This document shows positions 758 to 57,314 of a stretch of 64,000 nt of DNA, one piece after another. Positions within the stretch are counted from its first letter, which is position 1. Each line of letters opens with the position of its first letter. Both the position numbers and the translations under genes were made by a program. The DNA comes from Amycolatopsis alba DSM 44262 (GTDB taxonomy: Bacteria; Actinomycetota; Actinomycetes; Mycobacteriales; Pseudonocardiaceae). The notes beneath the pieces are model-generated. The model saw only the letters and a list, made by a program, of their open reading frames with translations, ran no database searches and was not told where the DNA came from. The stretch is taken from the NCBI RefSeq assembly GCF_000384215.1, contig NZ_KB913032.1, forward strand, positions 1,637,021-1,701,020, read 5' to 3'.

Positions 758-810
758 TCCGTGAAGGCCTCCTTCCCTACCCTCAAGGTAGTGAAGGAGG
801 CCTTCACGGA
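758..810. terminator. Type A palindrome between convergent genes
   Basis: Inverted repeat with 24-base arms (758-781 and 787-810), one mismatch and a 5-base loop. The arm core is GTGAAGGCCTCCTT. It lies between the stops of the regulator (736) and the permease (819), so it can end transcription from both sides. It has no U-tract. The same core recurs at 30734-30792. Confidence 0.75.
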
Positions 811-818
811 CTTTCGGG

Positions 819-1835
819 CTAAGTCTGGGCTTTCCCGCCGGCGTAGCGGGAAATGATCAGCGCGACCAGGATGATCACGCCGTAGATCGCTTTCAGCCAC
901 TCAGGCGGCACCTGAGCGACCTGCAGCAGGTTGGTGACCGTCTGCAGGAGCAGCACGCCGGTGAGCGCCCCGACCAGCGTGCCCTTCCCACCGTCCAGGG
1001 AGACACCGCCGATCACCGCAGCCGCGAACACCTGGAGGATGAGCCCGTCGCCCTGATCGGCGCCGAGCGCACCGACGTAACCGGTGTACGCGAGCCCGCC
1101 GATCGCGGCCAGCACACCGGCCACGACGAACACACCCCACGAGATCCGGTCGACGCGGATACCGGCGGCCCGTGCGGCTTCCCGGTTCCCGCCGATGGCG
1201 TAGAGCGACCGGCCGATCCGGTGATACCGCAGCCCCAGCCCGAACACGGTGAACAGCGCCGCGGCCAGCCACACCGACATCGGCAGCCCGATGAACGTCG
1301 TCGTCGCCAGCGCGGTGAACACGTCCAGCTGGTCGAAGAGCGTCTTCCCCTGGGTGGACCCGATCTGCGTGCCGCGCAGCACCGTCAGCATCGCCAGCGT
1401 GACGATGAAGGCGTTCAGCTTCAGCTTGACGATCAGGAACCCGTTCACGAAACCGACCGCGGCACCGGCCACCAGCACGGCGAGGATGCCGGCGAAACCG
1501 GGGAATTCGGTGCCGAAGCCCGAAGACGCCACCGGGATGACCAGCATCGCGCCGAGCGCGGGCGCCATGCCCATGGTCGATTCCAGCGACAGGTCGAACT
1601 TCCCGGTCAGCAGCACGAGCGATTCGCCGAGCACCACCATCGACAGCGCCGCCGAGGCGGACAGGATCCCGACGATGCTGCCGAAGGTCAGGAACGTGTC
1701 ACTGATCAGTCCTCCGATGATCAGCACCACGACGAGCGCCGGAATCAGGGCGAGTTCGCGCAGCCAGCGGAACTTCCGGCGGCGCGGCGGGGCAGGCAGC
1801 GACGAAGTCTTCGGATCGGTCATGAGTTCAGTCAC
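819..1835 (-). CDS. Sugar ABC transporter permease (RbsC/BPD_transp_2 family)
   Basis: A 338-residue integral membrane protein of the carbohydrate-uptake-2 permease family. It has a basic cytoplasmic N-terminus (to about residue 30) followed by roughly 8-10 hydrophobic segments. The conserved stretch around AAGIRVDRISWGVFVVAGVLA includes the loop that contacts the ATPase. The GTG start at 1835 overlaps the ATPase stop by four bases (GTGA) behind GAAGGAG. An in-frame ATG lies four codons later at 1823. It is the last gene of the operon and would carry the monosaccharide across the membrane with the lipoprotein encoded at 3349-4392. L-fucose or a related 6-deoxy sugar is the likely substrate, judged only from the adjacent catabolic genes. 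Confidence 0.9.
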   Translation of the reverse strand: MTELMTDPKTSSLPAPPRRRKFRWLRELALIPALVVVLIIGGLISDTFLTFGSIVGILSASAALSMVVLGESLVLLTGKFDLSLESTMGMAPALGAMLVIPVASSGFGTEFPGFAGILAVLVAGAAVGFVNGFLIVKLKLNAFIVTLAMLTVLRGTQIGSTQGKTLFDQLDVFTALATTTFIGLPMSVWLAAALFTVFGLGLRYHRIGRSLYAIGGNREAARAAGIRVDRISWGVFVVAGVLAAIGGLAYTGYVGALGADQGDGLILQVFAAAVIGGVSLDGGKGTLVGALTGVLLLQTVTNLLQVAQVPPEWLKAIYGVIILVALIISRYAGGKAQT

Positions 1836-3352
1836 CGCTCGACTCCTTCGATGTCGGCCACCAGGTCGCCGTCGGACCAGCCCGCCCGGTGTTCGGCGAC
1901 CACGGCACCCGCGCGGAGCACGAGCACCCGGTCGCTCAGGCGGAGATCGTCCAGTTCGTCGCTGACGATCAGCACCGCCTTGCCCTCGGCCCGCACCCGG
2001 TCGACGACCGCGAGCAGCGCCTCCTTCGATTTCACGTCCACCCCCGCGGTCGGGTTGATCAGCACGACCAGGCGCGGATCACCGGCCAGCGCACGGGCAA
2101 GGACGACCTTCTGCTGGTTGCCACCGGAAAGGTCGGACACCGGCTGGTCGGCGTCGGCCGCGACGATGTCGTAGTCCCGCAAAGCTTTTGACGCTTTCGC
2201 GTACCGCGCGCCCGGCGACGCGACACCGCCCTTGCCCATGCGATCCAAAATGGACAGTGTGGCGTTGTCCGCGATGGAGTGTTCGAGTACCAGCCCTTCG
2301 TGGTGCCGGTCTCTGGGCACACAGCCGATCCCGGCGCGGATCGCGGCCGGGATGTCGCCCGGTTTCAACGGTTTCCCGTCCACCCGGATCGTGCCCGCGC
2401 TCGGTGACAGCAGGCCGTACACGGTTTCGGCGACCTGGTGCTTGCCGCTGGCGTTGCTGCCCGCGAGCCCGATCACCTCGCCGCGGTGGATCCGGAACGT
2501 CACGTCTTCGAAGCCGTCACCGGAAAGCCCGTCGACGGTCAGCACCTCGTCGGCGTCCTCGGCCAGCGCCTCACGCGTCGAGGCGTCGCGGACGGAAAGC
2601 CCGCCCTGCTCGCCGGTCATCGCGTCGATCAGCTCGGCGCGGCCGACCTCCGAGACCGGCGCGGTCAGGATGTGCTTGGCGTCGCGCAGCACGGTGACCG
2701 CCTGGCACACCTCGTACACCTCGTGGAGGTGATGCGAGATGAACAGGAACGTCACCCCGTTCGCCTGCATCTGGCGCATCCGCGCGAAGAGCCGCTCGAT
2801 CGCCTGGCTGTCCAGTTGCGCCGTCGGCTCGTCGAGCACGATGAACCGGGCACCGTAGGAAAGCGCTCTGGCGATCTCGACGAACTGCCGGTCTTCGACC
2901 GAAAGCTCGCCAGCCGGGGTGTCGACGTCGACACCCACGTCCCAGGAGTCGAGCAGCTCCCGTGCCTGGCGGCGTAATCGCTGCCAGCCGATCGCGAAGC
3001 CCTTACCCGACTGGCGGTTGAGGAACAGGTTCTCCGCGACGGTCAGCTGCGGGACGACCATCGCGTGCTGGTAGACACAGGCGACGGCACGCTTCCAGTC
3101 GTCCTGTTTGGACAAGGGCGGTGCGGGAACGCCACCGAACTCGACCCGTCCGGTGTCCGTTTTGGACAGTCCGGTGAGGATCGAGACCAGCGTCGACTTC
3201 CCGGCACCGTTGCGGCCGACGAGCGCGTGCGACTCGCCGGGGTTGACGGTGATGCTGACGTCGGACAACGCCACGGTCGGGCCGTAGCGTTTGCCGACGC
3301 CCTGTGCGCTGACCACCGGCACGGCGGCGGACCCGGCGGGCAGCGCGCTCAC
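1832..3352 (-). CDS. Sugar ABC transporter ATP-binding protein with two NBDs (RbsA/MglA type)
   Basis: A 506-residue tandem ATPase. The first nucleotide-binding domain has a Walker A at about residues 46-53 (GRNGAGKS) and the Walker B LDEPTAQLD. The second has the signature LSGGNQQKV but a degenerate P-loop (GSNASGKH), which is usual in RbsA-type proteins where the second site is weak. The open frame extends much further upstream, but that part is the shadow of the binding-protein gene. The likely start is the GTG at 3352, which overlaps the binding-protein stop by four bases and gives the normal family length. It energises uptake through the permease at 819-1835. Confidence 0.9.
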   Translation of the reverse strand: MSALPAGSAAVPVVSAQGVGKRYGPTVALSDVSITVNPGESHALVGRNGAGKSTLVSILTGLSKTDTGRVEFGGVPAPPLSKQDDWKRAVACVYQHAMVVPQLTVAENLFLNRQSGKGFAIGWQRLRRQARELLDSWDVGVDVDTPAGELSVEDRQFVEIARALSYGARFIVLDEPTAQLDSQAIERLFARMRQMQANGVTFLFISHHLHEVYEVCQAVTVLRDAKHILTAPVSEVGRAELIDAMTGEQGGLSVRDASTREALAEDADEVLTVDGLSGDGFEDVTFRIHRGEVIGLAGSNASGKHQVAETVYGLLSPSAGTIRVDGKPLKPGDIPAAIRAGIGCVPRDRHHEGLVLEHSIADNATLSILDRMGKGGVASPGARYAKASKALRDYDIVAADADQPVSDLSGGNQQKVVLARALAGDPRLVVLINPTAGVDVKSKEALLAVVDRVRAEGKAVLIVSDELDDLRLSDRVLVLRAGAVVAEHRAGWSDGDLVADIEGVER

Positions 3353-4392
3353 AGGTTGTTCCCCCAGAGAGCCTTGTCGTCGACGTTGTCCTTGGTGACG
3401 ACCGGCGCGGGGAGCTGGTCTTCCAGGATGCCGGGCCGGACCTCGACGATCGTGCTGCCGTGGTCGGTCGGCCCTGCCTTGAAGGTCTCCCCCTCCATCG
3501 CCTTCTTGACCCAGTACATGCCGTACTTGGCGTAGTCGTCGGCGGGCTGGGACACGGTCGCGTCGAGTTCGCCCGCGCGGATCGCGGCCAGCTCCTGCGG
3601 GATGCCGTCGTTGCTGACCAGCACGACATGCTTCGGGTCGCCGACCGGGAAGTAGAGGTTCTTGCGTTTGAGCGCCTGCTGCGTCGGCGCCAGGTAGACA
3701 CCGCCCGCCTGCATGTACACGGCCTTGATGTCCGGGTTGGCGGTCAGCAGACTGTCCAAACCGGACGACGCCTTGTCCGCCTTCCACTCGGCAGCGACCT
3801 CCAGCACCTGGACGCCGGGGAACTTCGCCTTCATGCATTCCCGGAACGCCTCGGAGCGGTCGCGGCCGTTGACCGAGGCGAGATCGCCCATGACCTGCAC
3901 GACCTTGCCCGACGTGACCTTCGCGCCGATCGCTTCACAGGCCTTGGTGCCGTACGCCTTGTTGTCCGCGCGCACCACCATCGCGACCTTGCCGCTCTCG
4001 GGCGCGACATCGACCGCCACCACCGGGACGCCTTTGTTCTCCGCTGCCTTGAGGCCCGCCACGACGGCGGCGGAGTCGATGGGGGTCACGACAAGGCCCT
4101 TGACGCCCTGATTGAGCAAGGTGTTGACGTCGGTGATCTGCTTCGCCGAATCGCTGTCCGCGTTGACCGTCGGCAGCGCGTCGACGCCCTGTTCCTTCGC
4201 CTTCAGCGGTACGTAGTTGTTGTAGGCCTGCCAGAACGGTGAGGTCAGCAGCGGGATCGTCGCGCCGACCTTCCCGCCCTGCGCTCCACCGGCACCCGGT
4301 TTCGGAGCGTTGTCCTTCGTGGACCCACAGGCCGACAGCGCCAGCCCGAGCGCGGTGGCCGCGGCGGCCACCCTGATCACCCTCGTACGCAC
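3349..4392 (-). CDS. Sugar ABC transporter substrate-binding lipoprotein
   Basis: A 347-residue periplasmic-binding-protein-like (type I, Peripla_BP_4) lipoprotein. The signal peptide ends in a lipobox LSAC with lipidated Cys22, so the mature protein is anchored outside the membrane. The mature part shows the two-lobe sugar-binding fold, for example the ITDVNTLLNQGVKGLVVTPID segment. The GTG start at 4392 has AAGGAGG five to six bases upstream; a nearby ATG is out of frame. It is the first transporter gene of the operon, after the catabolic enzymes. Ligand identity (fucose-like sugar) is inferred from the neighbours. Confidence 0.9.
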   Translation of the reverse strand: MRTRVIRVAAAATALGLALSACGSTKDNAPKPGAGGAQGGKVGATIPLLTSPFWQAYNNYVPLKAKEQGVDALPTVNADSDSAKQITDVNTLLNQGVKGLVVTPIDSAAVVAGLKAAENKGVPVVAVDVAPESGKVAMVVRADNKAYGTKACEAIGAKVTSGKVVQVMGDLASVNGRDRSEAFRECMKAKFPGVQVLEVAAEWKADKASSGLDSLLTANPDIKAVYMQAGGVYLAPTQQALKRKNLYFPVGDPKHVVLVSNDGIPQELAAIRAGELDATVSQPADDYAKYGMYWVKKAMEGETFKAGPTDHGSTIVEVRPGILEDQLPAPVVTKDNVDDKALWGNNL

Positions 4393-4419
4393 CGCATCCT
4401 CCTTGATGACAGCGGGAAC

Positions 4420-5178
4420 CTAGTGCTGGACCGGGCCGCGCGGACGCAGCCCGTACATACCTCCGTCGACGGCGAGTGCCGTGCCGGTGGTCGAAGCCGA
4501 CAGCGGACTGGCGAGGTACACGACCGCGTTCGCGACCTCGTCCGCGGTCACCAGCCTGCCCATCGGCTGACGGGCGGCCAAAGCGGCCCGTTCGGCCTCC
4601 GGGTCGCCGGCGGAGTCGAGCAGCCTGCCGACCCACGGGGTGTCCGCGGTACCGGGGCAGACGCAGTTGACCCGGATCCGGTCGGCGAGGTGGTCGGTCG
4701 CCATCGCCAGGGTCAGCGAGAGCACCGCGCCCTTGCTGGCCGAGTACAGCGCGCGGTTGGGCAGGCCTGCCCACGCGGCGATCGAACAGGTGTTGACGAT
4801 CGCGGCCGACGGCGAGTTCTTCAGATGCGGCAACGCGGCCCGCGCGAGCCGCACCATGCCGACGACGTTGATGTCGAGGACCCGGTGCCACTCGTCGTCA
4901 CTGTTGGAGGTGACGTCGCCCTGCGCGCCGATTCCCGCGTTGTTGACCAGGACGTCGAGCCTGCCGAAACGCTCCGCGACCGCGTCGATCGCCGCGCGGA
5001 CCTCGTCGTCGGAGCCGACGTCGCACCGGAATCCGGTGAGACCTTCGGGAAGGTCGTCCGGCTTCAGGTCGAGGACCGCGACCTTCGCCCCGCGTGCGGC
5101 GAGCAGGTCGGCGGTGGCCCTGCCGATACCGGAGGCACCGCCGGTGACGGCGGCGACAAGGCCTTCGAACTCACTCAC
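4420..5178 (-). CDS. SDR-family dehydrogenase, probable 2-keto-3-deoxy-L-fuconate dehydrogenase
   Basis: A 252-residue classical short-chain dehydrogenase. It has the NAD(P)-binding TGGASGIG at residues 12-19, the NNAG motif, and a YSASK catalytic pair. Placed between a fuconate dehydratase and a transporter, it most likely oxidises 2-keto-3-deoxy-L-fuconate to the 2,4-diketo acid, as known for the non-phosphorylative fucose route in Xanthomonas. An L-fucose or L-fuconolactone step is an alternative, because many SDRs of this type are similar. The GTG start overlaps the dehydratase stop by eight bases. Confidence 0.8.
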
Positions 5179-7335: not shown

Positions 7336-7390
7336 GGATTTTCCCTTCCGGCCGAACCGTCAGCATTCGACGGCTCCAACAGCAACGAAC

Positions 7391-8816: not shown

Positions 8817-8850
8817 GGGCTCGTGAGCGGCGATCGGGTTCTGACGGACC

Positions 8851-8864
8851 CGTATTTGCCTACC
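8851..8864 (+). repeat. 14-base motif shared with 47699-47712
   Basis: CGTATTTGCCTACC occurs here and, in inverted orientation, at 47699-47712. Both copies lie next to a type B palindrome downstream of a gene, which suggests that a larger unit was duplicated. Confidence 0.6.
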
Positions 8865-9040
8865 CACTGGTGCGAGTGGCGGTCGGGTGTCGAGGATTTG
8901 GGACGTTGTACGTCCGGAAGCTTCCCCGTCGCGTATCCGCCACCGGTCATGACCGGTACGACGTTGATCAACGGAGGATTGGGGACGGTGACTGTCCCGG
9001 ATCTTCCGTCGATCAAGATTCAAGACCTGGCGACCCGCTC

Positions 9041-9087
9041 GACGGTGAAGGAATCAGGACGTTGAACGTCCTGATTCCTTCACCGTC
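9041..9087. terminator. Type B palindrome, perfect 23-base arms
   Basis: Perfect inverted repeat with 23-base arms around a single G. The arm begins GACGGTGAAGGAATCAGGAC. It lies between the 3' ends of the efflux pump and the ferredoxin reductase. A near copy is at 47615-47663. There is no U-tract. Confidence 0.75.
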
Positions 9088-9131
9088 AAGCCCTACAACC
9101 GCGGAACCGCCACTTTCCGCTTCCCGCTGAC

Positions 9132-9184
9132 GTTGCGAAAGCCACTTTCACAACGTTGAAGGTTGCGAAAGTGGCTTTCACAAC
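9132..9184. repeat. Type C palindromic repeat
   Basis: Two 23-base units (9132-9154 and 9162-9184), each of the form GTTGCGAAAG-NNN-CTTTCACAAC and each nearly self-complementary. They differ only in the central triplet (CCA against TGG), so they are direct and inverted repeats at the same time. The GCGAAAGCCACTTTC core recurs at 44325-44340 and a variant at 40250-40303. Confidence 0.7.
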
Positions 9185-9241
9185 TCCACCTCGACGTTCC
9201 GGTGGCGGGTTGGGGGGTGCGTGAAGGGGGCCTTCATGTAC

Positions 9242-10465
9242 CTAGGCGAGTCCCTTGAGATCGGCCGTCTTCAGCTGCTCCGCCGTCACCGAAGCGCGTC
9301 CCTCGACAAGGGCCTTCAACGCGTCCCCGTCATCCCACTGGTTGACGTTCATCGCGGCGGTCACCTGCCCGTCCCGCAGCCAGAACGCCGTGAAGTCCCG
9401 CGCCGCGAGGTCGCCGCGCACCACCAGCTGATCGGTTTCGGGATCGGCGAGGCCTCGGTATTCGCAGCCGAGGTCGTACTGGTCCGAGAAGAAATACGGG
9501 CTCTTCAGGTACGGCTCGTTCTCTCCCAGCAGGTTCGCCGCGACGTGCTCGCCCTGCCATTTCGCGTTCGACCAGTGCTCGACGCGGACGCGTTTTCCGT
9601 AGCGGGGATGGAAATGCGCGGCGATGTCGCCGATCGCGTAGACGTCGGGCGCGGCGGTCCGCAGGCCCGCGTCGGCGCAGACACCGCCGTCGTCGGACAG
9701 TTCCAGCCCGGCGGCGTGCGCGAGGTCGACGCGGGGAGCGGCGCCGACGGCCACCAGCACGACGTCCGCGGGAAGCTCATCCCCGCTCTGAAGACGTACG
9801 CCGGTCACCCCGTCCGGGCCACCGGTGAACCCGGCGACGCCTTCACCGAGACGCCAGTTCACCCCGTGGGTGGTGTGAAGGTCCTTGAAGACGCCGGACA
9901 CCTCCTCGCCCAGTACCGCGAGCAGCGGCGAGCCGACCTGGTCGACCACGGTCACCTCAGCGCCATGCTCCCTGGCGGCCGCCGCGGCCTCAGTGCCGAT
10001 CCAGCCCGCGCCGACGATCACCACCCGTTCGGCGTCCTTGAACGCCGAACGCAGCGCCAGCGCGTCGTCGAGGGTGCGCAGGGTCCGCAGTCCGGGCAGG
10101 TCGCCGCCGGGCACCGGCAAGGAGCGCGGCTGGGAGCCGGTCGCGAGCACGAGACGGTCGAAGCGATGCTCGCCGCCCGCGTCGTCGTGCACGAGGCGCG
10201 AGCCGAGTTCGATCTTGGTCGCGGTCGCGCCGCTCCGGAAAGCGATGTCCTTCTCTTCGTAGAAACCCGCGTCGTGCACCCAATCGGGTTCATCGGTGTT
10301 GCCCATCAGCAGCCCTTTGGACAAGGGCGGTAATTCGTACGGGCGATGCTTGTCGGTGCCGAGCAGCAGGATTTCACCCGCGTAGCCACGTTCTCGCAGC
10401 GTCCCGGCGGCCGTCGCTCCCGCGAGGCCGGCACCGACGATGACGATCTTCCTGGGTTCGGACAC
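9242..10465 (-). CDS. FAD-dependent ferredoxin/rubredoxin reductase
   Basis: A 407-residue flavoprotein of the ferredoxin-NAD+ reductase family that supplies electrons to P450s or dioxygenases. It shows the FAD Rossmann motif VIVGAGLAGATAAG near the N-terminus, PPLSKGLL, a second dinucleotide fold VIVGAGWIGTEAAA for NAD(P)H, and the FAD-contacting YAIGDIAAHF. It has no ferredoxin or P450 neighbour here, so its partner is encoded elsewhere. It is monocistronic, and its 3' end abuts the palindrome-rich gap. Confidence 0.9.
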   Translation of the reverse strand: MSEPRKIVIVGAGLAGATAAGTLRERGYAGEILLLGTDKHRPYELPPLSKGLLMGNTDEPDWVHDAGFYEEKDIAFRSGATATKIELGSRLVHDDAGGEHRFDRLVLATGSQPRSLPVPGGDLPGLRTLRTLDDALALRSAFKDAERVVIVGAGWIGTEAAAAAREHGAEVTVVDQVGSPLLAVLGEEVSGVFKDLHTTHGVNWRLGEGVAGFTGGPDGVTGVRLQSGDELPADVVLVAVGAAPRVDLAHAAGLELSDDGGVCADAGLRTAAPDVYAIGDIAAHFHPRYGKRVRVEHWSNAKWQGEHVAANLLGENEPYLKSPYFFSDQYDLGCEYRGLADPETDQLVVRGDLAARDFTAFWLRDGQVTAAMNVNQWDDGDALKALVEGRASVTAEQLKTADLKGLA

Positions 10466-27439: not shown

Positions 27440-30271
<2,832 letters not shown>

Positions 30272-30318
30272 GGGAGCTCCTTTACTCAGGCGCCGGATAG
30301 ACCGGTGCGCTGGGAACT

Positions 30319-30502
30319 CCCCCTCTGTCATGGCACCTGAGAGTTTCACCACCCGTGGGAAGGGTGGCTTTCACCTTGGGTGAGGCGCACTTGCGCGCCT
30401 GCTTTCCAGAGTGGCCTCGCGGAAGCGGTAGTGGCTACCTGAGAGATTCCGGGGAGTTTGCTCCTTCGGTGCCCCACCACGTTCGTGGGGGCTCTCCCGC
30501 TC
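30319..30502 (-). promoter_or_regulatory. Tandem glycine riboswitch (two aptamers)
   Basis: Read on the minus strand, aptamer 1 (30502 to about 30425) has GGGAGAG, GCACCGAAGGAGCAA and AATCTCTCAGGT. Aptamer 2 (about 30415 to 30319) has ACTCTGGAAAGC, AACTCTCAGG and GACAGAGG. These are the hallmark elements of the glycine riboswitch. GGGAG just after aptamer 2 can pair with CTCCC beside the TTG start of gcvP, suggesting translational control. Glycine is expected to switch the operon on. Confidence 0.92.
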
Positions 30503-30624: not shown

Positions 30625-30729
30625 ACTCGCGTGATCAGAGCCGGAACTCGCGTGACGGAAGCCGGAACTCGTGAGTCACGGCTCTGATCACGCGAGTCAC
30701 GGGCCTGATCACGCGAGTCACGCGTTCTC
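30625..30729. repeat. ACTCGCGTGA repeat cluster
   Basis: A perfect 18-base inverted repeat (30625-30642 and 30680-30697, arm ACTCGCGTGATCAGAGCC) sits among further copies and variants of ACTCGCGTGA and its complement up to about 30722. It lies between the gcv promoter and the terminator of the polyamine operon. Function is unknown. Confidence 0.6.
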
Positions 30730-30733
30730 CATC

Positions 30734-30792
30734 AAGTCCGTGAAGGCCTCCTTGAGGGACTCAGAGTCCCTCAAGGAGGCCTTCACGGACTT
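30734..30792. terminator. Type A palindrome, perfect 29-base arms
   Basis: Arms 30734-30762 and 30764-30792 are perfectly complementary around one A. The core GTGAAGGCCTCCTTGAGGG matches the element at 758-810. It starts 25 bases after the stop of the SDR at 30817 and ends the polyamine operon. No U-tract follows. Confidence 0.78.
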
Positions 30793-30816
30793 GGGCAGCG
30801 CGACCAGGGCAGCGGG

Positions 30817-31584
30817 TTAGAGGGGGGTGACGTAGGCGCCGGAGATGCCGCCGTCCACCAGGAACTGCGAAGCGGTGATGAACGAGGCGTCGTCGCTCGC
30901 CAGGAAGGCGACCGCGCCCGCGATCTCGTCCGGTTCCGCGAACCGCCCGACCGGCACGTGCACCAGCCGCCGCGCCGCCCGTTCGGGGTCCTTCGCGAAG
31001 AGTTCCTTCAGCAGCGGCGTGTTCACCGGACCGGGGCACAGCGCGTTGACCCGGATGTTCTCCCGCGCGAACTGCACGCCCAGCTCCCGGCTCATCGCCA
31101 GCACCCCGCCCTTGGACGCGGTGTAGGAGATCTGCGACGTCGCCGCGCCCATCACCGCGACGAACGAAGCCGTGTTGATGATCGAGCCCTTGCCCTGCCG
31201 CCGCATATGGGGCAGCACCGCCTTGCAGCACAGGTACACCGAGGTCAGGTTGACCTTCTGCACCCGCTCCCAGGCGTCGATGCCGGTGGTGAGGATCGAG
31301 TCGTCCTCGGGCGGGGAGATGCCGGCGTTGTTGAACGCGACGTCGACCGAGCCGAATTCGTCCACGGCGGTCTGGAACAGGGCCTCGACCTGGTCGGCGT
31401 CGGTGACGTCGGCCTGCACGAACAGGCCGCCGACCTCGTCTGCCGCGGCTTTGCCCGCATCGGCGGAGATGTCGCCGATGACGACCTTCGCGCCCTCGCT
31501 CGCCAGCCGCCGCGCGGAGGCGAGGCCGATGCCACCGCTGCCGCCGGTGATGACCGCGACGCGGCCTTCGAAACGCTGCACCAC
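30817..31584 (-). CDS. SDR-family oxidoreductase
   Basis: A 255-residue classical SDR with TGGSGGIG near residue 13, NNAGISPP and the YTASK catalytic pair. It is the last gene of the polyamine operon, 43 bases after the aldehyde dehydrogenase, with GGAGG before tandem GTG starts. It could oxidise a hydroxy intermediate or reduce a keto acid formed in amine breakdown. Family members of this type are often annotated as 3-oxoacyl-ACP reductases, so the name should not be taken as function. Confidence 0.82.
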   Translation of the reverse strand: MVQRFEGRVAVITGGSGGIGLASARRLASEGAKVVIGDISADAGKAAADEVGGLFVQADVTDADQVEALFQTAVDEFGSVDVAFNNAGISPPEDDSILTTGIDAWERVQKVNLTSVYLCCKAVLPHMRRQGKGSIINTASFVAVMGAATSQISYTASKGGVLAMSRELGVQFARENIRVNALCPGPVNTPLLKELFAKDPERAARRLVHVPVGRFAEPDEIAGAVAFLASDDASFITASQFLVDGGISGAYVTPL

Positions 31585-35797: not shown

Positions 35798-35810
35798 GCC
35801 TCACCCCACA

Positions 35811-35847
35811 CGCGAGCCGGCGCCTCTTCGGGAGGTGCCGGCTCGCG
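35811..35847. terminator. Strong hairpin between convergent genes
   Basis: Arms 35811-35826 and 35832-35847 (CGCGAGCCGGCGCCTC with one G-U pair) around the 5-base loop ttcgg, followed by GCTTT. It serves both the stress protein and the aspartyl-tRNA synthetase. Confidence 0.75.
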
Positions 35848-35851
35848 GCTT

Positions 35852-40249: not shown

Positions 40250-40303
40250 GCCGCGAAAGTCACTTTCTCCATCCCCGACATCTTCGAAAGTGACTTTCGC
40301 GGC
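40250..40303. terminator. Type C palindrome, perfect 18-base arms
   Basis: GCCGCGAAAGTCACTTTC (40250-40267) and its complement (40286-40303) with an 18-base loop. It is 53 bases after the stop of the HAAS membrane protein gene. Same GAAAGNNACTTTC core as 9132-9184 and 44325-44373. Confidence 0.72.
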
Positions 40304-40356: not shown

Positions 40357-41601
40357 CTAGCGCGTCGGCTGGGTGGAGTTCGACGGCGGCGCCGGGGTCG
40401 AGGACGGCGGCGCCTGGGGAGTCGCGGAAGGCGGCACCGGTGCGATCTTCGGGATCGCCGCGCTGAACGGGACGTCGGCTTTTTCCTGGCAGAAGGCGCG
40501 GGAACCGTTGTAGCCGTTGACGTTCCCCTGGTCGTCCTGGACACCCCGCTCGACGCGCGGGCGCGGGTAGCGGTTGTCGTCGCCGACCTTCCGCTTCTCG
40601 CCCGTGTACCTCTCACACGCGTACCGGGTCGTGCTGAGCGGGCGGCCGTTCTCGTCGTAGAGATAGACATCCGTCAGCGGTTTGCCCTCGGCGTCGAACG
40701 CGTAGATGTTCTCCACTTCCTGGCTGCCGTAGTTCAGCTGCGGGTTGCCGTAGGTGTCGTTGTACGGCGTGTAGCCGTTTGTGTAAGGACCGTCGGAGTA
40801 GGAGCGCTTCGCGGCCAGATCGACGGCAGCGCCCACCCCGCCGAACATGCTGCCGATGACGAACGCCGAGATCGGCACGGCCAGCCACAGCAGCCGCCGG
40901 TCCGTCTTCAGTTTCGGCCCCGCCCAGACCACCGCGACGGCCGCCAGCAACATCAACGGCAGCAACAGAATGGCCTCGGTGTGCCGAAGCATGAGCAGCA
41001 GGCCGAACCCGACCAGCACCGCCGCGCAGAGCACCCACCACGCCGGTTTGAGCGCGCGGAAGTAGTCCAGTCCCTTGCCGTTCCGGTTGCTCTGGAACGA
41101 CGTCACGATCTCGCGGAGCTTGATCACCTCAGGCAGTTCCGCGATCGAGGCGACACCTCGCCGGACCACGTAGGCGACACTGATCGCGAGCACGGGGGCG
41201 ATGAAAAGCAGGCCCAGCAACGGTTCCACCCGGAGCAGCATCGCGGCCGCGAAGCCGAACAACGCGAACCCGCCCATGGAGAACACCAGGCCCCAGAACG
41301 CGAACCGTGCTCCGCCGATCCCGGTCTTCACCTTCAGGATGGCGGGCTTGTCGCCCGTCTCGGCCGGACGCGGCGGATATCCACCGGACGCGCGCAGTTC
41401 GGCGGCGTAGCTCTCAGGGCTGCCCAGACGCTCGATCAGGGCGTCGACCTTCGGGTTGTCCCCCAGCTCCGCCTCCATTTCGGCGAGGTGGGGCCGGACG
41501 TCTTCGAGGATCTCCTCGACTTCGCTCTCGGGCAGGTCGGCGAGCGCGCTCCTGACCCTCGCCAGATACACCCGCACGGCGGTCGGATTCTGCGTGCTCA
41601 T
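40357..41601 (-). CDS. HAAS-domain multi-pass membrane protein
   Basis: A 414-residue protein. The N-terminal 75 residues form the HAAS signalling domain (YLARVRSALADLPESEVEEI, ERLGSPESYAAELRA). Four to six hydrophobic segments (about 95-265) follow, and then an extracytoplasmic, Tyr/Asn-rich part with a Pro/Ser-rich tail. HAAS proteins pair with PadR regulators, and here its ATG overlaps the PadR stop by four bases. The exported part has three cysteines. Molecular function is unknown. Confidence 0.82.
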   Translation of the reverse strand: MSTQNPTAVRVYLARVRSALADLPESEVEEILEDVRPHLAEMEAELGDNPKVDALIERLGSPESYAAELRASGGYPPRPAETGDKPAILKVKTGIGGARFAFWGLVFSMGGFALFGFAAAMLLRVEPLLGLLFIAPVLAISVAYVVRRGVASIAELPEVIKLREIVTSFQSNRNGKGLDYFRALKPAWWVLCAAVLVGFGLLLMLRHTEAILLLPLMLLAAVAVVWAGPKLKTDRRLLWLAVPISAFVIGSMFGGVGAAVDLAAKRSYSDGPYTNGYTPYNDTYGNPQLNYGSQEVENIYAFDAEGKPLTDVYLYDENGRPLSTTRYACERYTGEKRKVGDDNRYPRPRVERGVQDDQGNVNGYNGSRAFCQEKADVPFSAAIPKIAPVPPSATPQAPPSSTPAPPSNSTQPTR

Positions 41602-44032: not shown

Positions 44033-44058
44033 AGTCCTTCCGCACCAAGGAGTTCGTG

Positions 44059-44556
44059 ATGGCTGTGGTTTCCGTCGTGCTTTCCGTCCTGCTGGCCGCG
44101 ATCTTCGCCGTACTGGGGGTGGCGAAGGTCCTGCGTCAGCCGTCGTCGATCTCCCGGACCGAAAGGCTCGGCTTCTCGGTCCGGGAGATCCAGGGGATCG
44201 GCGCTCTCGAAATCGCCGGGGCCGCGGGCCTGGTCGGCGGGTTCTTCCGGCTCCCGCTGGGGATCGCCGCGGCGATCGGCCTCACCGGGGTCTTTTCCGG
44301 CTGGCGAACGGCGACTTCGGGTGTCGCGAAAGCCACTTTCGAGACACCTGACGTCCTGAAAGTGGCTTTCGCGCCACGGGGGCGCGGCCGGCGGACACCG
44401 GGCCGAGGCTGCGGCGTTCGTGGCAGTCATGCCTGGACGGCAACGGATTCCCGCGCCCGGTCCCGGATGCGACCGACCACTGTGGACCGTCGCCAGGCAT
44501 GCGTGACCTCCACCAGCCACGCCGCCTCGGTGGCGATGTCCGGCTCGTCGAGGTAG
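44059..44556 (+). CDS. DoxX-like membrane protein with 3' end replaced by a palindrome
   Basis: The first about 85 residues are DoxX-like: hydrophobic segments AVVSVVLSVLLAAIFAVLG and the GALEIAGAAGLVGGFF region. After GLTGVFSGWR (about 44310) the expected last membrane segment is missing. The frame instead runs through the type C palindrome (44325-44373), reading VAKATFETPDVLKVAFA, and then through arginine-rich sequence that overlaps the convergent gene by 130 bases. The gene is probably truncated, and its product may be shortened or unstable. The start has AAGGAG, 26 bases after the permease stop. Confidence 0.6.
   Translation: MAVVSVVLSVLLAAIFAVLGVAKVLRQPSSISRTERLGFSVREIQGIGALEIAGAAGLVGGFFRLPLGIAAAIGLTGVFSGWRTATSGVAKATFETPDVLKVAFAPRGRGRRTPGRGCGVRGSHAWTATDSRARSRMRPTTVDRRQACVTSTSHAASVAMSGSSR
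44325..44373. repeat. Type C palindrome inside the DoxX 3' end
   Basis: CGCGAAAGCCACTTTC (44325-44340) and GAAAGTGGCTTTCGCG (44358-44373), perfect 16-base arms. The GCGAAAGCCACTTTC core is identical to 9136-9150. It lies where the DoxX homology ends, 54 bases from the stop of the convergent gene. Confidence 0.7.
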
Positions 44557-47547: not shown

Positions 47548-47614
47548 GCCGTCGATTCTCCCACTGGGCGGCGGACAGCCTCGTGAGTGGTGAGGACGGT
47601 TCCAACCGAGACCG

Positions 47615-47663
47615 CGACGGTGAAGGAATCAGGACACTGAACGTCCCGATTCCTTCACCGTCG
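47615..47663. terminator. Type B palindrome, second copy
   Basis: Arms 47615-47635 and 47643-47663 (CGACGGTGAAGGAATCAGGAC), 20 of 21 bases paired, 7-base loop. Near identical to 9041-9087. It lies downstream of the PL6 gene. Confidence 0.72.
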
Positions 47664-47694: not shown

Positions 47695-47724
47695 CGCAGG
47701 TAGGCAAATACGCGCGTACCTGCG
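47695..47724. repeat. Hairpin with the shared 14-base motif
   Basis: CGCAGGTA (47695-47702) and TACCTGCG (47717-47724) enclose GGTAGGCAAATACG (47699-47712), the complement of the motif at 8851-8864. It is 23 bases after the PL6 stop. Confidence 0.5.
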
Positions 47725-50846: not shown

Positions 50847-50897
50847 CGGTGATCAGGGTACGCAGGTGCCGCCACCTCTTTACCGGCACGGTCCCCG

Positions 50898-51623: not shown

Positions 51624-51698
51624 GGCCACTCCCTACCTACAGCGATCCCCACATTCCCTGAACTCAGTTTGCCCTCATCGCCGCCGTAAGGGGTGAAA

Positions 51699-51737
51699 GC
51701 GCGCGGTACCGGGCGTGTCCCGCCCGATACCGCGCGC
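51699..51737. terminator. Hairpin after the anti-sigma gene
   Basis: GCGCGCGGTACCGGGCG (51699-51715) and its near complement (51721-51737), one mismatch and a 5-base loop. It lies six bases after the stop of the gene at 51743. Confidence 0.7.
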
Positions 51738-51742
51738 CATGA

Positions 51743-52531: not shown

Positions 52532-53046
52532 CACACGCTCCTCCCGGAGACAGCCTCGTCGTGCTGTCTCTGCAGGGCCGCGCGGAGGACGTCGAGTCCC
52601 CGCGCGGCCTGGCTCCTGACCGTCCCTTCCGAACAGCGCAGCGCGACGGCGACCTCCGCGACCGGGAGATCGGCGCAATAGCGCAGCACGACGACGGCGC
52701 GCTGTTTCGGCGGAACTTCGGCGAGGGCGCGAAGCAGCGAATCCGAAATACCGGTGTTCGCCGGGGCCACGGGCTCTTCGGGGAAGACGCCGTCGCGGTT
52801 CTCTCTGCTCCGCCACGGTCGCCGCCGCTCATCGAGCCAGCAGCGCATCAGGATCTGCCTCGTGTAGTTGTCGACGGGGCCTTTCCGGCGGACCTTCGGC
52901 CAGACCCGGTAAAGGCGTATCAGCGCGGTTTGGACCAGATCCTCCGCGAGATGCCAGTCGCCGCAGAGCAAGTACGCCGTCCGCCGCAGCGGCAGCGCTT
53001 TGTCTCTGGCGAACTCCCTGAAACTCGCATCGTCCCCAGACCGCAT
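52531..53046 (-). CDS. SigE-family ECF RNA polymerase sigma factor
   Basis: A 171-residue ECF sigma factor. Region 2 is FREFARDKALPLRRTAYLLCG through AEDLVQTALIRLY, and region 4 is LAEVPPKQRAVVVLRYCADLPV through CSEGTVRSQAARGLDVLR. The ATG has GAGGAGG five bases upstream. It forms an operon with the membrane protein downstream. The signal is unknown. Confidence 0.88.
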   Translation of the reverse strand: MRSGDDASFREFARDKALPLRRTAYLLCGDWHLAEDLVQTALIRLYRVWPKVRRKGPVDNYTRQILMRCWLDERRRPWRSRENRDGVFPEEPVAPANTGISDSLLRALAEVPPKQRAVVVLRYCADLPVAEVAVALRCSEGTVRSQAARGLDVLRAALQRQHDEAVSGRSV

Positions 53047-53113
53047 CGTGCCTCCTCATCCGTGTTCCGGTGTATCTCACGGACGGGGAGGCACGAAACG
53101 TTGCACGGACGGC

Positions 53114-53803
53114 TCAGCCGTTGAGATTGACCAGCTTGAAGGTCACGTAGTGGTCGGGCGTGTAGAAGATCTCGCCGCCCTTGCCGGAGATCACGCGGTC
53201 GTTCGAGCCCACCGGGAACAGCTGGTAGTAGCCGGCGGCGCACGACGGCAGCACGCCTTCGCGGTTCTCGTAGACCGTGCCGGTCGCGCCGCCGCGGGCC
53301 TTGTCCACCACGGACTTCGCCGCGGAGGACAGCGTCGAGTAGCCGGTCTTCGCCAGCTTCGAGGTGTCACCGCAGGTCGGCGCCGGGGTGCCCTTGACGT
53401 CGATCACGGAGAAGGTCTTGTAGTGGTCGCCGGTGTAGAAGTACTCCCCGCCGGTCCCGGTGACGATGCGGCGCGTGCCGCGGTTCGACGAGCCAGGGGT
53501 CGGGACGGTGTACTCGTGGTAGTAGCCCGAAGCGCACTTCGGGAGGATGTTCTCCCGGTTCGAGAAGACCGTCCCGTCGTTGTCCGGGTACGGGTACGGC
53601 CCGCCCTTCTGGATGAGGTTGTACGTCGTCGTCGCCTCGGCGGGCAGCGACGGGAGCGACACGTGCTTGAACCCGGCGAGATCCCCGCAAGGGTTCTGCT
53701 GGATGGAGACGGGCGTCGCGGCCTGCGCGGCACCGACCCCGCCGAAGAACGTGACAAGCAGAACGAGCAGCGCGGCGGCGGCCCGCGATCGTTTGTTGGT
53801 CAT
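53114..53803 (-). CDS. Secreted protein with two tandem RNase Sa-type guanyl-specific ribonuclease domains
   Basis: A 229-residue secreted protein with a signal peptide (about 1-29). Domain 1 (about 38-135) matches RNase Sa closely, with GTVFSNRENILPK, YYHEYTV and GTRRI and GDHY segments: catalytic E97, R112 and H127 are present. Domain 2 (about 144-229) repeats the fold (GTVYENREGVLPSC, GYYQLFPV, TPDHY), but the catalytic Glu is Leu195 while R203 and H218 remain. Domain 1 should be an active guanyl RNase; domain 2 is probably inactive. No barstar-like inhibitor gene is adjacent. The start at 53803 lacks a clear ribosome site. Confidence 0.85.
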   Translation of the reverse strand: MTNKRSRAAAALLVLLVTFFGGVGAAQAATPVSIQQNPCGDLAGFKHVSLPSLPAEATTTYNLIQKGGPYPYPDNDGTVFSNRENILPKCASGYYHEYTVPTPGSSNRGTRRIVTGTGGEYFYTGDHYKTFSVIDVKGTPAPTCGDTSKLAKTGYSTLSSAAKSVVDKARGGATGTVYENREGVLPSCAAGYYQLFPVGSNDRVISGKGGEIFYTPDHYVTFKLVNLNG

Positions 53804-53902
53804 TTTCGGACCGTAACCCGATCGTGTGTTCGCCAGAAGGCGTCGAGATGAACTCTCCACCGCCGCTCACCGCTGACCGACCAACGGCTTCGGCCGTTCG
53901 GG

Positions 53903-54385
53903 TCAACCTCGTTCGGAGTACTTCTCCGCGAGACGCTTGAACACTACGGGGGGCACCAGGTGCTCGATGTCGCCACCGAGCGCGGAGATCTCCTTGACCA
54001 GCGAACTCGACACGAAACCGTACGCCGGGTTGTTCGCCATCAGCAGCGTTTCGAGCCCGGTCAGCTCGCGGTTCATCTGGGCCATCTGGAGCTCGTAGTC
54101 GAAGTCGCTGACCGACCGCAGGCCCTTCGCGACGGCGATGATGTCGTTCTCGCGGCAGTAGTCGACCAGGAGTCCTTGCCAGGAGTCGACGCGCACGTTC
54201 GGCAGCTTCGCGGTGATCTCGCGAAGGATGTCCATCCGCTCCTCGGTGGTGAACAGGCCCTTCTTGCTCTTGTTCACCCCCACCGCGACGACGACCTCGT
54301 CGAACAGCTTGGCCGCCCGCTCGATGATGTCGAGATGTCCATTGGTGGCCGGATCGTAGGAACCGGGACAGACCGCACGCCGCAT
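53903..54385 (-). CDS. coaD: Phosphopantetheine adenylyltransferase
   Basis: A 160-residue nucleotidyltransferase with the N-terminal PGSYDPATNGHLDIIERA containing the HxGH-type motif (TNGHLD) and the C-terminal YGFVSSSLVKEIS. It makes dephospho-CoA from phosphopantetheine. It follows rsmD by 62 bases, the common order. The ATG has no strong ribosome site. Confidence 0.95.
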   Translation of the reverse strand: MRRAVCPGSYDPATNGHLDIIERAAKLFDEVVVAVGVNKSKKGLFTTEERMDILREITAKLPNVRVDSWQGLLVDYCRENDIIAVAKGLRSVSDFDYELQMAQMNRELTGLETLLMANNPAYGFVSSSLVKEISALGGDIEHLVPPVVFKRLAEKYSERG

Positions 54386-54447
54386 GGCGCGGACGCTACC
54401 AAGGCCGAGGGCCCCTTGCGCGTCCTGCGCGCTTTCTCAGTGCTGCG

Positions 54448-55002
54448 TCACACCTGATATTCGGCCCAGTAGAGCGCGGTGTCGCCGTAGCGCTTCGTCC
54501 GCATCGGCTCGAAACCCGGCGGCCAGTCCGGCTCGCCGTCCCGCGCGGCTCGTTCGATCACCACCAGCGCACCGTCCGTGACCCACCGGCCCGCCGCGAG
54601 CGCGGCCATGACCTCCCCCAGGCGGGTGGAATCCACCGCGTACGGCGGATCGGCGAGGACGATGTCGAACGTTTCCGGCGCCGGAGCGGCCACGACGGAC
54701 TCGACGGCCCCGGCCCGGACAGTGCCGCCGAGCCCGAGCGCGGCGACGTTGCCCTTGAGCACTTCGACCGCGCGCCGGTCCGACTCGACGAACAGCGCGC
54801 CCGACGCACCGCGGGACAACGCCTCCAAACCGAGCGCGCCCGAACCGGCGTAGAGATCGAGGACCTGGGTCCCCTGCAGCTCGCCGGCGACCTCCAGCGC
54901 GTTGAAGAGCGCTTCGCGCACCCGTTCCGACGTGGGCCGCGTGCCCTTCGGAGGGACCTTCAACCGCCTGCCGCCCGCGGTCCCCGCCACGATCCTGGTC
55001 AT
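54448..55002 (-). CDS. rsmD: 16S rRNA (guanine(966)-N(2))-methyltransferase
   Basis: A 184-residue SAM methyltransferase with VLDLYAGSGALGLEALSRG, the N6/N2-methylase motif LADPPY and the N-terminal RIVAGTAGGRRLK. A TTG start six codons upstream exists, but ATG 55002 gives the conserved start. It modifies G966 of 16S rRNA and precedes coaD. Confidence 0.93.
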   Translation of the reverse strand: MTRIVAGTAGGRRLKVPPKGTRPTSERVREALFNALEVAGELQGTQVLDLYAGSGALGLEALSRGASGALFVESDRRAVEVLKGNVAALGLGGTVRAGAVESVVAAPAPETFDIVLADPPYAVDSTRLGEVMAALAAGRWVTDGALVVIERAARDGEPDWPPGFEPMRTKRYGDTALYWAEYQV

Positions 55003-55124
55003 TGCAGCATCGTGCCTCAACGGCTTCCACCGTGACGTTGGCCGGGACTTGGTGAAGCCGCCGCCCAGCTCGCGTAGAGTCGTCCTTCGCCCTCGGAGGC
55101 GATAGAAGCGTTTAGGAGCGTTGC

Positions 55125-57239
55125 GTGTCCGAACCTCGGGTCAGACGGGCCGAGATCGCCATCGAGCAAGCCCATGTGGACACGGTCTACACCCGGCTCG
55201 CCGAATTGCGAGCCCAGGCAGAGGCCATGCGTACCAAGGGCTATGAGATCGGCCATGGCGCCGGGCGGGAAGCGATCTTCGAGCAGGCGTCGATGCTGTT
55301 CGAACGGGACATGATGGTCTACCACGCCAATCAGACCCTCCAGACTCTCGACGCGGAGTACGAGGGGCTGGTGTTCGGCAGGCTCGACCATCTCGACAAC
55401 GACCACATCTACGTGGGCCGTCTCGGGATCCGCGACGCCGAGTTCGACAACCTCGTCACCGACTGGCGCGCGCCCGCCGCCGCCGCGTTCTACCAGGCGA
55501 CGGCCGAGGAGCCGATGGACGTCGTCCGGCGCCGGGTGATCCGGTGCTCCGGGCAGAACGTGCTCGACGTCGACGACGACGTGCTGATCGCCGACGCGGT
55601 CCCGGAGACCATGCAGATCGTCGGCGAGGGCGCGCTCATGGCCGCGCTCGGACGGTCTCGTGGCGAGAAGATGCGGGACATCGTCGCGACCATCCAGAAG
55701 GAACAGGACGAGGTCATCCGGGCGCCGTGGCGCGGTGTCACGGAGATCACCGGCGGTCCCGGCACCGGCAAGACCGCGGTCGCGCTGCACCGCGCGGCGT
55801 ACCTGCTCTACCGCCACCGCCGCCAGCTCGGCGGCGCGGGCGTGCTGGTGATCGGCCCGTCCGGGGTGTTCACCAGCTACATCTCGCGGGTGCTGCCGTC
55901 GATGGGTGAGACGAACGTCGAACTGCGCGCGCTCGGCGAGGTCCTCGACGGCCTCGAAGCGACCCGGCAGGACGCCGCGCCGCTGGCCGCGATCAAGGGA
56001 TCGCTGCGGATGCGCAAGATCCTGCTGCGCGCGTTGCGGGACACGCCGTCGGACGCGCCCGAGGACATGAAGATCGTCTACCGCGGCGAGGTGCTGCGGC
56101 TGAACGCGCGCGAACTCGACAAGGTGCGCCGCAAGGTCCACACCGCGGGCGGGCCGCCGAACCGGTCGCGGATCCGCGCCGCGGAACTGCTGCTCGACGC
56201 GCTCGCCGCGAAGGCCGAGCAGCACGCGAAGGACGACGGGCGGCAGATCGACAAGGCCGAGCTGGTCTCCGAACTCGGCGAGCGGATCGAGTTCCACCGG
56301 TTCCTGGTGGTCTGGTGGCCGATCCTGTACCCGGCGCAGATCCTGCGGTGGCTCGGCACCGAGAAGCGGCTCGCCTCCGCGGCGAAGGGCCTGCTCAACC
56401 GCAACGAGATCAGCATGCTGGCCGCCGACTTCGCGGACCGCTCGCGTGGCTGGACCATCGCCGACGTCGCGCTCCTCGACGAGCTGCGCGTCCTGATCGG
56501 GCAGCCGCCGAAGAGCCGCCGGGCCCGCCAGAACATCGAGGTCAACCCGGACCGCGGCGGCGCCCCGACCCGGCCGGAGCACTACGACGAGTACTCGCAC
56601 GTGGTCGTCGACGAGTCGCAGGACCTCTCGCCGATGCAGTGGCGGATGGTCGGGCGGCGCGGCAAGTACGCGAGCTGGACCGTGGTCGGCGACCCGGTGC
56701 AGAGTTCCTGGCCGGATCCGGCCGAGGCCGCGATGGCGCGCGACCAGGCGTTCGGGCTCAAGACCACCCGGCGCCGGTTCACCCTGCGCACCAACTACCG
56801 GAACTCGGCGGAGATCTTCGACCTGGCCGCGAAGGTCGTCGCCGGGCACGCCGAAGCCGACGAGCTCCCGCGCGCGGTGCGGCAGACCGGCATCACGCCG
56901 GAGGTCCGGCCGGTCGAGGCCGCCGGGCTGGAAGCGGCGACGCAGGCCGCGGTGAAGGAACTGATGGGAGTCGTCGAAGGCACGGTCGGGGTGATCACCG
57001 CCATGGACCGGGTGCCCGAGGTCGAGGGCTGGCTGTCCGAGCTTTCGGACGAGCGGCTCAAGGTCGTCGGCAGCCTCGATTCCAAGGGCCTCGAGTACGA
57101 CGCGGTCGTCCTGGTGGAACCCAACGACCTCATCACGGAGTCGACCACCGGGCGACGGGTGCTGTACGTGGCGCTGACCCGCGCGACCCAGCAGCTGACC
57201 GTACTGGCCTCCAACCCGGACTGGATCCCGGCCGCCTGA
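55125..57239 (+). CDS. HelD-like RNA polymerase-associated SF1 helicase
   Basis: A 704-residue UvrD-like protein: N-terminal coiled coil (about 8-50), Walker A GGPGTGKTAVAL near residue 210, DExx motif HVVVDESQDLSP, and motifs LRTNYRNSAEI, SKGLEYDAVVLVEP and LYVALTRATQQL. This organisation fits HelD/HelR, which strips RNA polymerase from DNA; HelR homologues give tolerance to rifamycins. No rifampicin-associated element was recognised in the upstream region. The start is GTG with AGGAG upstream. It is monocistronic and ends at the type D palindrome. Confidence 0.88.
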   Translation: MSEPRVRRAEIAIEQAHVDTVYTRLAELRAQAEAMRTKGYEIGHGAGREAIFEQASMLFERDMMVYHANQTLQTLDAEYEGLVFGRLDHLDNDHIYVGRLGIRDAEFDNLVTDWRAPAAAAFYQATAEEPMDVVRRRVIRCSGQNVLDVDDDVLIADAVPETMQIVGEGALMAALGRSRGEKMRDIVATIQKEQDEVIRAPWRGVTEITGGPGTGKTAVALHRAAYLLYRHRRQLGGAGVLVIGPSGVFTSYISRVLPSMGETNVELRALGEVLDGLEATRQDAAPLAAIKGSLRMRKILLRALRDTPSDAPEDMKIVYRGEVLRLNARELDKVRRKVHTAGGPPNRSRIRAAELLLDALAAKAEQHAKDDGRQIDKAELVSELGERIEFHRFLVVWWPILYPAQILRWLGTEKRLASAAKGLLNRNEISMLAADFADRSRGWTIADVALLDELRVLIGQPPKSRRARQNIEVNPDRGGAPTRPEHYDEYSHVVVDESQDLSPMQWRMVGRRGKYASWTVVGDPVQSSWPDPAEAAMARDQAFGLKTTRRRFTLRTNYRNSAEIFDLAAKVVAGHAEADELPRAVRQTGITPEVRPVEAAGLEAATQAAVKELMGVVEGTVGVITAMDRVPEVEGWLSELSDERLKVVGSLDSKGLEYDAVVLVEPNDLITESTTGRRVLYVALTRATQQLTVLASNPDWIPAA

Positions 57240-57264
57240 TCCCTCTTTCCCCGAACGCGAAAAG

Positions 57265-57314
57265 CTGAAGGGCTCCTTCAGGGCACTGGTGAATGTCCTG
57301 AAGGAGCCCTTCAG
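57265..57314. terminator. Type D palindrome
   Basis: CTGAAGGGCTCCTTCAGG (57265-57282) and its perfect complement (57297-57314), 14-base loop. Each arm is almost self-complementary. It lies between the convergent helicase and WD40 genes. The TGAAGG-NNN-CCTTCA unit is also at about 9221-9235. Confidence 0.75.

What the first reader, a model, noticed from the sequence alone, without database searches (positions are those of the whole stretch)
758..57314. Families of long intergenic palindromes at gene 3' ends
At least eight near-perfect inverted repeats with 16-29-base arms lie downstream of genes, mostly between convergent pairs. They group by sequence: type A (758-810, 30734-30792; core GTGAAGGCCTCCTT), type B (9041-9087, 47615-47663; core GGTGAAGGAATCAGGAC), type C (9132-9184, 40250-40303, 44325-44373; core GAAAGNNACTTTC) and type D (57265-57314, half copy near 9221). 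Most lack a U-tract. A terminator only needs a stem, so conserved arm sequence points to a spreading element or a protein that binds the arms.
Basis: partly seen in the sequence, partly recalled or inferred. Interest (0 to 1): 0.75.

Follow-up and report, generated by a model that had tools for sequence, protein, structure and literature searches.

The report
Mobile palindromes at bacterial gene ends
The genome of this soil bacterium (an Amycolatopsis) carries many short, nearly perfect DNA palindromes that sit where genes end; most belong to copied families that often differ between related species at the same spot, so they look like tiny mobile elements that may also act as transcription stop signals.

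Summary
The palindromes are real and beyond chance (15 hairpins in the window; 0 and 1 in two shuffles). Types A and C are large families: 375 and 409 core sites in the 9.8 Mb genome, 0 for the reversed patterns. In 1.2 Mb of the chromosome, 205 of 215 strong palindromes are intergenic; 73 of 118 convergent gaps carry one, against 49 of 287 tandem and 4 of 202 divergent. A1 and C1 copies are 59 bp units with sharp edges and unrelated flanks, and many arms are themselves small palindromes. At orthologous gaps, species 90-95% identical share some palindromes and differ in others: of 16 clean convergent gaps in one pair, 5 share, 4 hold unrelated palindromes, 4 hold one in one species only. I read them as REPIN-like miniature mobile palindromes without the REP transposase (0 of 60 genomes), probably also acting as U-less terminators or 3'-end barriers. 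Dispersal is well supported; the terminator role is inferred, and a 'safe harbour' model explains most of the positional bias. Corrections: type B palindromes are internal hairpins of a larger composite element found mostly inside other palindromes' loops; type D is one inherited locus; its 'half copy' at 9221 is type A3.

The parts
758..810 (.). A2 palindrome (GTGAAGGCCTCCTT core) between convergent genes 26-736 (+, GntR/FCD) and 819-1835 (-, permease)
8820..8851 (+). left half of an F palindrome (CTCGTGAGCGG...), outer arm of a composite element
8852..9114 (+). composite 'K' element, right end truncated; end motif GTATTTGCCTACCC at 8852 (right limit approximate, by eye)
9037..9091 (.). type B palindrome, internal hairpin of the K element
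9132..9184 (.). C2 palindrome (GTTGCGAAAGCCACTTTCACAAC.gttgaag)
9223..9242 (-). single A3 arm (the finding's 'half copy near 9221')
30625..30718 (.). G-type inverted/tandem repeats (ACTCGCGTGATCAGAGCC...)
30733..30793 (.). A1 palindrome, 30 bp perfect arms, 24 bp past the stop of 30817-31584 (-, short-chain dehydrogenase)
40250..40303 (.). type C variant: two inverted GCGAAAGTCACTTTC units with an 18 nt loop, 54 bp past the stop of 40357-41601 (-)
44321..44377 (.). C1 palindrome in convergent gap 44033-44426
47580..47610 (+). left half of an F palindrome, followed by B (right limit approximate)
47615..47663 (.). type B palindrome, internal hairpin of a left-truncated K element
47699..47711 (-). 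right end motif of that K element (GGTAGGCAAATAC)
57265..57314 (.). type D palindrome, one locus, kept in 12 of 12 relatives, convergent gap 57240-57438
35811..35847 (.). ordinary hairpin in a convergent gap; a similar hairpin is kept in 9 of 12 relatives, a dispersed-family palindrome stands there instead in G019 and G031 and a variant in G020
62462..62514 (.). I-type palindrome (CCCGAGCGCCACG)

Best explanation
Several families of miniature palindromic elements disperse through Amycolatopsis chromosomes as discrete units (59 bp for A1 and C1). In many families each unit is an inverted pair of small imperfect palindromes (e.g. GAAGG-CCT-CCTTC), so one strand can fold as one long hairpin or as two short ones, as in a REPIN. 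Units inside genes and promoter zones are not kept, so survivors sit between converging genes or after a stop codon. There the strong hairpin (about -40 to -57 kcal/mol as RNA) most likely serves as a U-less terminator or a 3'-end barrier to exonucleases, for both transcripts where genes converge. Units are gained and lost fast, so sister species often have different palindromes at the same junction. Shown: family structure, sharp edges, gap-type bias, differences at orthologous gaps, no detectable RAYT. Inferred: active transposition, the unknown mobilising enzyme, and the terminator/barrier role.
For: Copy number and control: A 185+190, C 216+193, reversed 0. 116 of 161 palindromes share a 20-mer with three or more loci in 1.2 Mb, against 18 of 1000 other intergenic 55-mers. 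Sharp edges: beyond the unit, left-right pairing is near expectation. Gaps with a palindrome: 73/118 convergent, 49/287 tandem, 4/202 divergent in the window's genome; 22/43, 18/93, 0/66 in G019; 15/32, 13/92, 2/64 in G014. Turnover, G014 v G019 (95.2% identical), 16 clean convergent gaps: 5 share a palindrome, 4 have palindromes neither of which is found in the other's gap, 4 have one in one species only, 1 keeps a trace (one arm lost), 2 none; 27 of 27 clean divergent gaps empty. Nested arms: self-pairing 4.46 v 2.93 +/- 0.16 shuffled, 35 arms. Two-sided compensated changes exceed the independence expectation in six of six families, narrowly in A2 (18 v 14.1). Ordinary hairpins are commoner in convergent gaps without a palindrome than in the leftover DNA of occupied gaps (25/58 v 18/75 beyond shuffles, p 0.025; by score 9 or more 22/58 v 16/75, p 0.052). 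Junctions are occupied more evenly than gap length predicts (75 v 48.6 expected, 0 of 5000 simulations).
Against: No U-tract. In convergent gaps the distance to the nearest stop is as in random placement (715 of 2000 simulations, n=67). In tandem gaps the closeness to the stop (0 of 2000, n=55) weakens when 100 bp before the next start is excluded (55 of 2000, n=43) and vanishes at 150 bp (817 of 2000, n=36). If every convergent junction is an equal target, occupancy is as expected (3939 of 5000; square-root-of-length weights 23 of 5000). No G-U over A-C bias in the transcribed strand of tandem copies (40 v 31, p 0.34). Palindromes often add up rather than replace: D persists in 12 of 12 relatives beside newer ones, and with traces counted the types per convergent gap fall from 2-6 (best hairpin only) to 1-3. 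No target duplication seen by eye, no transposon-sized copy in 1.2 Mb, no mobilising enzyme found. Two-sided changes may be subfamily history, and copies were chosen by allowing few mismatches in both arms.
Confidence: 0.55

Rival explanations
1. Safe-harbour selfish palindromes: units insert anywhere and persist only where harmless (between converging genes, away from promoters); no cellular function.
For: Position in convergent gaps is random and the tandem bias is mostly promoter avoidance. No U-tract. No G-U bias. Units pile up: 17 of 75 occupied convergent gaps hold two or more, and newer palindromes stand beside D.
Against: Ordinary hairpins are scarcer where a unit is present (p 0.025, or 0.052 by the other cut-off); junctions are occupied more evenly than gap length predicts; at gap 35798 three relatives have a dispersed palindrome and no trace of the ordinary hairpin.
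Confidence: 0.33
2. Ordinary bidirectional terminators that evolved in place; similar arms reflect a common preference of RNA polymerase or RNA structure.
For: Gene-end stem-loops are usual: PMC1590033 (passages seen) reports that stable stem-loops prefer convergent gaps and the 50 bp after stops. D and the hairpins at 35811 and 53046 behave like inherited single hairpins.
Against: Near-identical 59 bp copies with the same loops at unrelated loci and abrupt edges, and 0 to about 190 copies between congeners, are not expected of independent origin.
Confidence: 0.05
3. Binding sites of a DNA protein (gyrase, nucleoid protein) that manages supercoils between converging genes, as proposed for E. 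coli BIMEs (recalled).
For: Convergent placement and dyad symmetry.
Against: Unrelated arm sequences occupy some orthologous gaps in sister species, so a sequence-specific binder is unlikely; a structure-specific one is not excluded.
Confidence: 0.05

Closest known systems
REPIN / REP doublets (BIME), e.g. Pseudomonas fluorescens SBW25 (PMC3116915, passages seen)
   Same: Inverted pair of small palindromes in a fixed-length unit, hundreds of extragenic copies, long-hairpin and two-hairpin folds, compensatory changes.
   Different: No RAYT/Y1 transposase in 60 of 60 genomes of the genus; several families side by side; strong convergent-gap bias; some units carry inserts of about 57 to 350 bp in the loop.
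CGTC-tagged REPs (PMC3733652, passages seen)
   Same: Palindromic repeats, mostly inverted dimers, with no dedicated transposase.
   Different: The paper reports them in five phyla that do not include Actinobacteria, with unit stems of 8-9 bp; here the long arms are 18-30 bp. Tag tetranucleotides were not tested systematically here.
TRIT model of the RNIE paper, Mycobacterium tuberculosis (only its mention and reference seen, in PMC3526491; the RNIE paper is not held)
   Same: Recalled: a sequence-conserved terminator motif repeated at 3' ends in an actinobacterium.
   Different: Sequence, turnover and mobility of TRIT could not be compared here.
Intrinsic terminators without U-tract ('I-shaped', recalled)
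   Same: Strong hairpin after stop codons, no U-tract.
   Different: Here most are copies of dispersed families, and they often differ between sister species.

Membership tests
REP/REPIN | inverted pair of small imperfect palindromes in a fixed-length unit | tested here: met
   A1, A2, C1, C2. A3 varies in loop length, and F and B arms fold poorly on their own.
REP/REPIN | extragenic, high copy number | tested here: met
   205 of 215 intergenic.
REP/REPIN | associated RAYT (Y1 transposase, PF01797) | tested here: not met
   0 of 60 genomes of the genus; the search rings in 5 of 14 control genomes. So called REPIN-like, not REPIN.
MITE | terminal inverted repeats with target-site duplication | tested here: inconclusive
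   Inverted ends yes; no duplication seen by eye in 79 printed copies of four families, but palindromic ends make it hard to see.
MITE | parent element with transposase and the same ends | tested here: inconclusive
   In 1.2 Mb one inward pair of unpaired arms at 0.7-6 kb, whose left member is a one-mismatch site inside a gene. Ends of the eight PF13586 transposase places in the genome could not be read.
canonical intrinsic terminator | GC-rich hairpin followed by a U-tract | tested here: not met
   T count equals background.
U-less terminator | RNA 3' ends map to the hairpin | not testable with these tools
   No RNA data.
Rfam families | match above gathering score | tested here: not met
   Only a glycine riboswitch at 30315-30419 in the window.

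The most novel reading that the evidence does not exclude
Amycolatopsis gene ends are contested by competing families of mobile terminator cassettes: palindromes moved by an enzyme unrelated to RAYTs that targets or replaces terminator hairpins, so that termination sites turn over between sister species while the junction stays served, and loops act as landing sites for larger hairpin arrays (K elements).
Probability: 0.25. Interest if true: 0.8.

Novelty: new variant of a known kind. Interest (0 to 1): 0.5.

Why it matters
If true, how an antibiotic-producing actinomycete ends its transcripts is shaped by populations of tiny mobile palindromes that are gained and lost between sister species. 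It also poses a clean question: what moves REPIN-like units where no RAYT is detectable? Junctions with different hairpins in sister species are natural test material for U-less termination in high-GC bacteria.

Tried and rejected
RAYT/Y1 (PF01797) as driver: in 20 relatives found only in one genome of another genus, and in 0 of 60 genomes of this genus. TnpB (PF07282) and IS110 (PF02371): none in the window's genome. Stems growing by copying of flanks: not the rule, since pairing outside the units is near expectation; one copy in G020 has about 12 bp of extra palindrome, unexplained. RNA-only selection seen as G-U excess: no signal. Vectors: two patterns have no exact match in IMG/VR; one K element and the A1 copy have no match on PLSDB plasmids. 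Whether Amycolatopsis outside the close clade has palindrome families of its own was not resolved.

Searches compare only the best hairpin of each gap. The clustering chains A1, A2, A3 and E and was not used for counts. One search gives 75 occupied convergent gaps and one search gives 73 of 118, because only restricts them to 50 bp or more. Orthology tables leave out gaps without both flanks or with rearranged flanks; for the number left out was not printed.

Literature searches (listings only, unless passages are named). No listed title or abstract start described these Amycolatopsis elements; the library holds only open-licence PMC papers.
Full report
Source. The window is positions 1637021-1701020 of a 9.81 Mb single-contig genome. 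Sixty genomes of its genus, itself included, were searched. Eight of them have contigs of the same length as named records: Amycolatopsis decaplanina, thailandensis, oliviviridis, coloradensis, orientalis, regifaucium, keratiniphila and strain WAC 01376.

Observation. Every listed palindrome is present. A hairpin scan gives 15 in the window and 0 and 1 in two shuffles. Genome-wide the A core GTGAAGGCCTCCTT has 185+190 sites and the C core GCGAAAGCCACTTTC 216+193, with none for the reversed patterns.

Census. In 1.2 Mb around the window I found 215 palindromes of score 14 or more, 205 intergenic and 10 in called genes. Gene calls come from my own codon-usage script, not from curated annotation. 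Of 161 with score 16 or more in gaps, 95 lie in convergent, 60 in tandem and 6 in divergent gaps; 39, 68 and 54 are expected from gap length. At least one is found in 73 of 118 convergent, 49 of 287 tandem and 4 of 202 divergent gaps of 50 bp or more; two relatives, 0.4 Mb each, show the same bias. 116 of the 161 share a 20-mer with at least three loci, against 18 of 1000 control stretches taken away from hairpins. By length this extrapolates to about 1,300 such palindromes per genome (inference).

Anatomy. A1 reads AAGTCCGTGAAGG CCT CCTTGAGGGACT-cag-(inverse); C1 reads GGTGTCGCGAAAG CCA CTTTCGGGAC-gtctgat-(inverse); both are 59 bp. Beyond these edges flanks are unrelated and pair about as expected. 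Many arms are themselves imperfect palindromes: 35 non-redundant arms score 4.46 against 2.93 +/- 0.16 for shuffles, though F and B arms fold poorly alone. The six RNA hairpins folded score -40 to -57 kcal/mol; halves of A1, C1, C2 and D fold on their own at -8 to -15. There is no U-tract. Lone arms are few in A (14 of 100), A3 (6 of 58) and C (1 of 100), but many in F (15 of 19), F2 (10 of 16) and G (11 of 15).

Composite elements. Type B palindromes are parts of something larger. An element here called K has end motifs GTATTTGCYTACCC/GGGTAGGCAAATAC; the four copies in 1.2 Mb with both ends measure 89, 191, 215 and 347 bp, and the larger ones hold internal hairpins. Three of these four, all but the 89 bp one, are flanked by F-type arms (one only partly on the right), and three further K copies sit inside A1 arms (read by eye). 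End motifs number 29+26 genome-wide with up to one mismatch. The five two-armed B palindromes in 1.2 Mb all lie 51-221 bp from a K end, including the two in the window, where K is truncated. A different insert of about 57 bp sits in two A1 copies. Whether short palindromes are internal deletions of long elements, or long ones insertions into loops, is open.

Turnover. Syntenic 37-60 kb of 14 relatives (90-95% nucleotide identity among them) were compared gap by gap. Counting only the best hairpin per gap, the five convergent gaps of the window carry 4, 6, 2, 5 and 3 palindrome types among 9-14 species. Counting two species as sharing if either palindrome leaves an 11-mer trace anywhere in the other's gap, and chaining such links, the numbers fall to 3, 3, 2, 1 and 1; still, in 100 of 235 species pairs at convergent gaps neither palindrome is found in the other's gap. 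At 57240-57438 the D palindrome persists in 12 of 12 relatives, beside a newer palindrome in five. At 35798-35851 nine of 12 relatives keep an ordinary hairpin; G019, G031 and G020 show no trace of it and have a palindrome of other sequence there. In the pair G014/G019 (95.2%), 16 clean convergent gaps give 5 shared, 4 unrelated, 4 in one species only, 1 with one arm lost, 2 empty; 27 of 27 clean divergent gaps are empty. Type C is confined to the 17 closest genomes (GcvP identity 94% or more) plus one stray site; type A occurs in 35 of 60, with 25-185 forward sites in those 17 and up to 103 elsewhere.

Function. For a terminator or barrier role: gene-end placement; ordinary hairpins commoner in unoccupied gaps (25/58 v 18/75, p 0.025; by the other cut-off p 0.052); more even spread over junctions than length predicts; and two-sided compensated changes above independence in six of six families, where related copies are not independent. 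Against: once 150 bp before starts is excluded the closeness to stops is gone, and in convergent gaps it never existed; an equal-junction model explains occupancy; there is no G-U bias and no U-tract. So function is plausible, not shown. Term-seq in Streptomyces avermitilis found U-lacking transcript ends to be genuine but weaker than U-rich ones, with a U-rich motif in about 25% of ends (PMC8780764, passages seen), which makes U-less ends unsurprising in this group.

Relation to known kinds. The closest are REPINs (PMC3116915, passages), which share the inverted doublet, the two folds and extragenic abundance, but are tied to RAYTs; none is detectable in 60 of 60 genomes here. CGTC REPs also lack a transposase; the paper that describes GTAG and CGTC REPs names phyla that do not include Actinobacteria (PMC3733652, passages). 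I therefore call these REPIN-like, not REPINs.

Verdict. A real, abundant, multi-family system of dispersed gene-end palindromes with fast gain and loss between species: a new variant of a known kind, with an unknown mover and a probable but unproven role in ending transcripts.

Noticed in passing
window 30315-30419 (-): Glycine riboswitch (RF00504, 54.8 bits) upstream of the glycine dehydrogenase gene 27440-30271 (-).
   Followed up: no
window 57439-60795 (-): nSTAND1 NTPase with WD40 repeats (13 WD40 stretches), beside a helicase-like gene 55125-57239.
   Followed up: no
window 30625-30718; also about 1425112, 1589656, 1780866, 2039088 in the genome: G-type repeats (ACTCGCGTGATCAGAGCC), partly tandem and partly inverted, a separate repeat class in intergenic DNA.
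   Followed up: partly
G014 gap orthologous to window 57240-57438: The gap is 1.7 kb long and holds a reading frame that looks like an IS3-type transposase (recognised by eye) next to G-type repeats.
   Followed up: partly
G019, gap at offset 278557 of the 400 kb stretch: A hairpin there contains an N and a stretch that looks like an Illumina adapter (recalled motif): probably an assembly error at a strong palindrome.
   Followed up: no
G020 gap orthologous to window 50847-50897: A palindrome whose stem runs about 12 bp further than that of similar copies, extending into the flanks on both sides.
   Followed up: no
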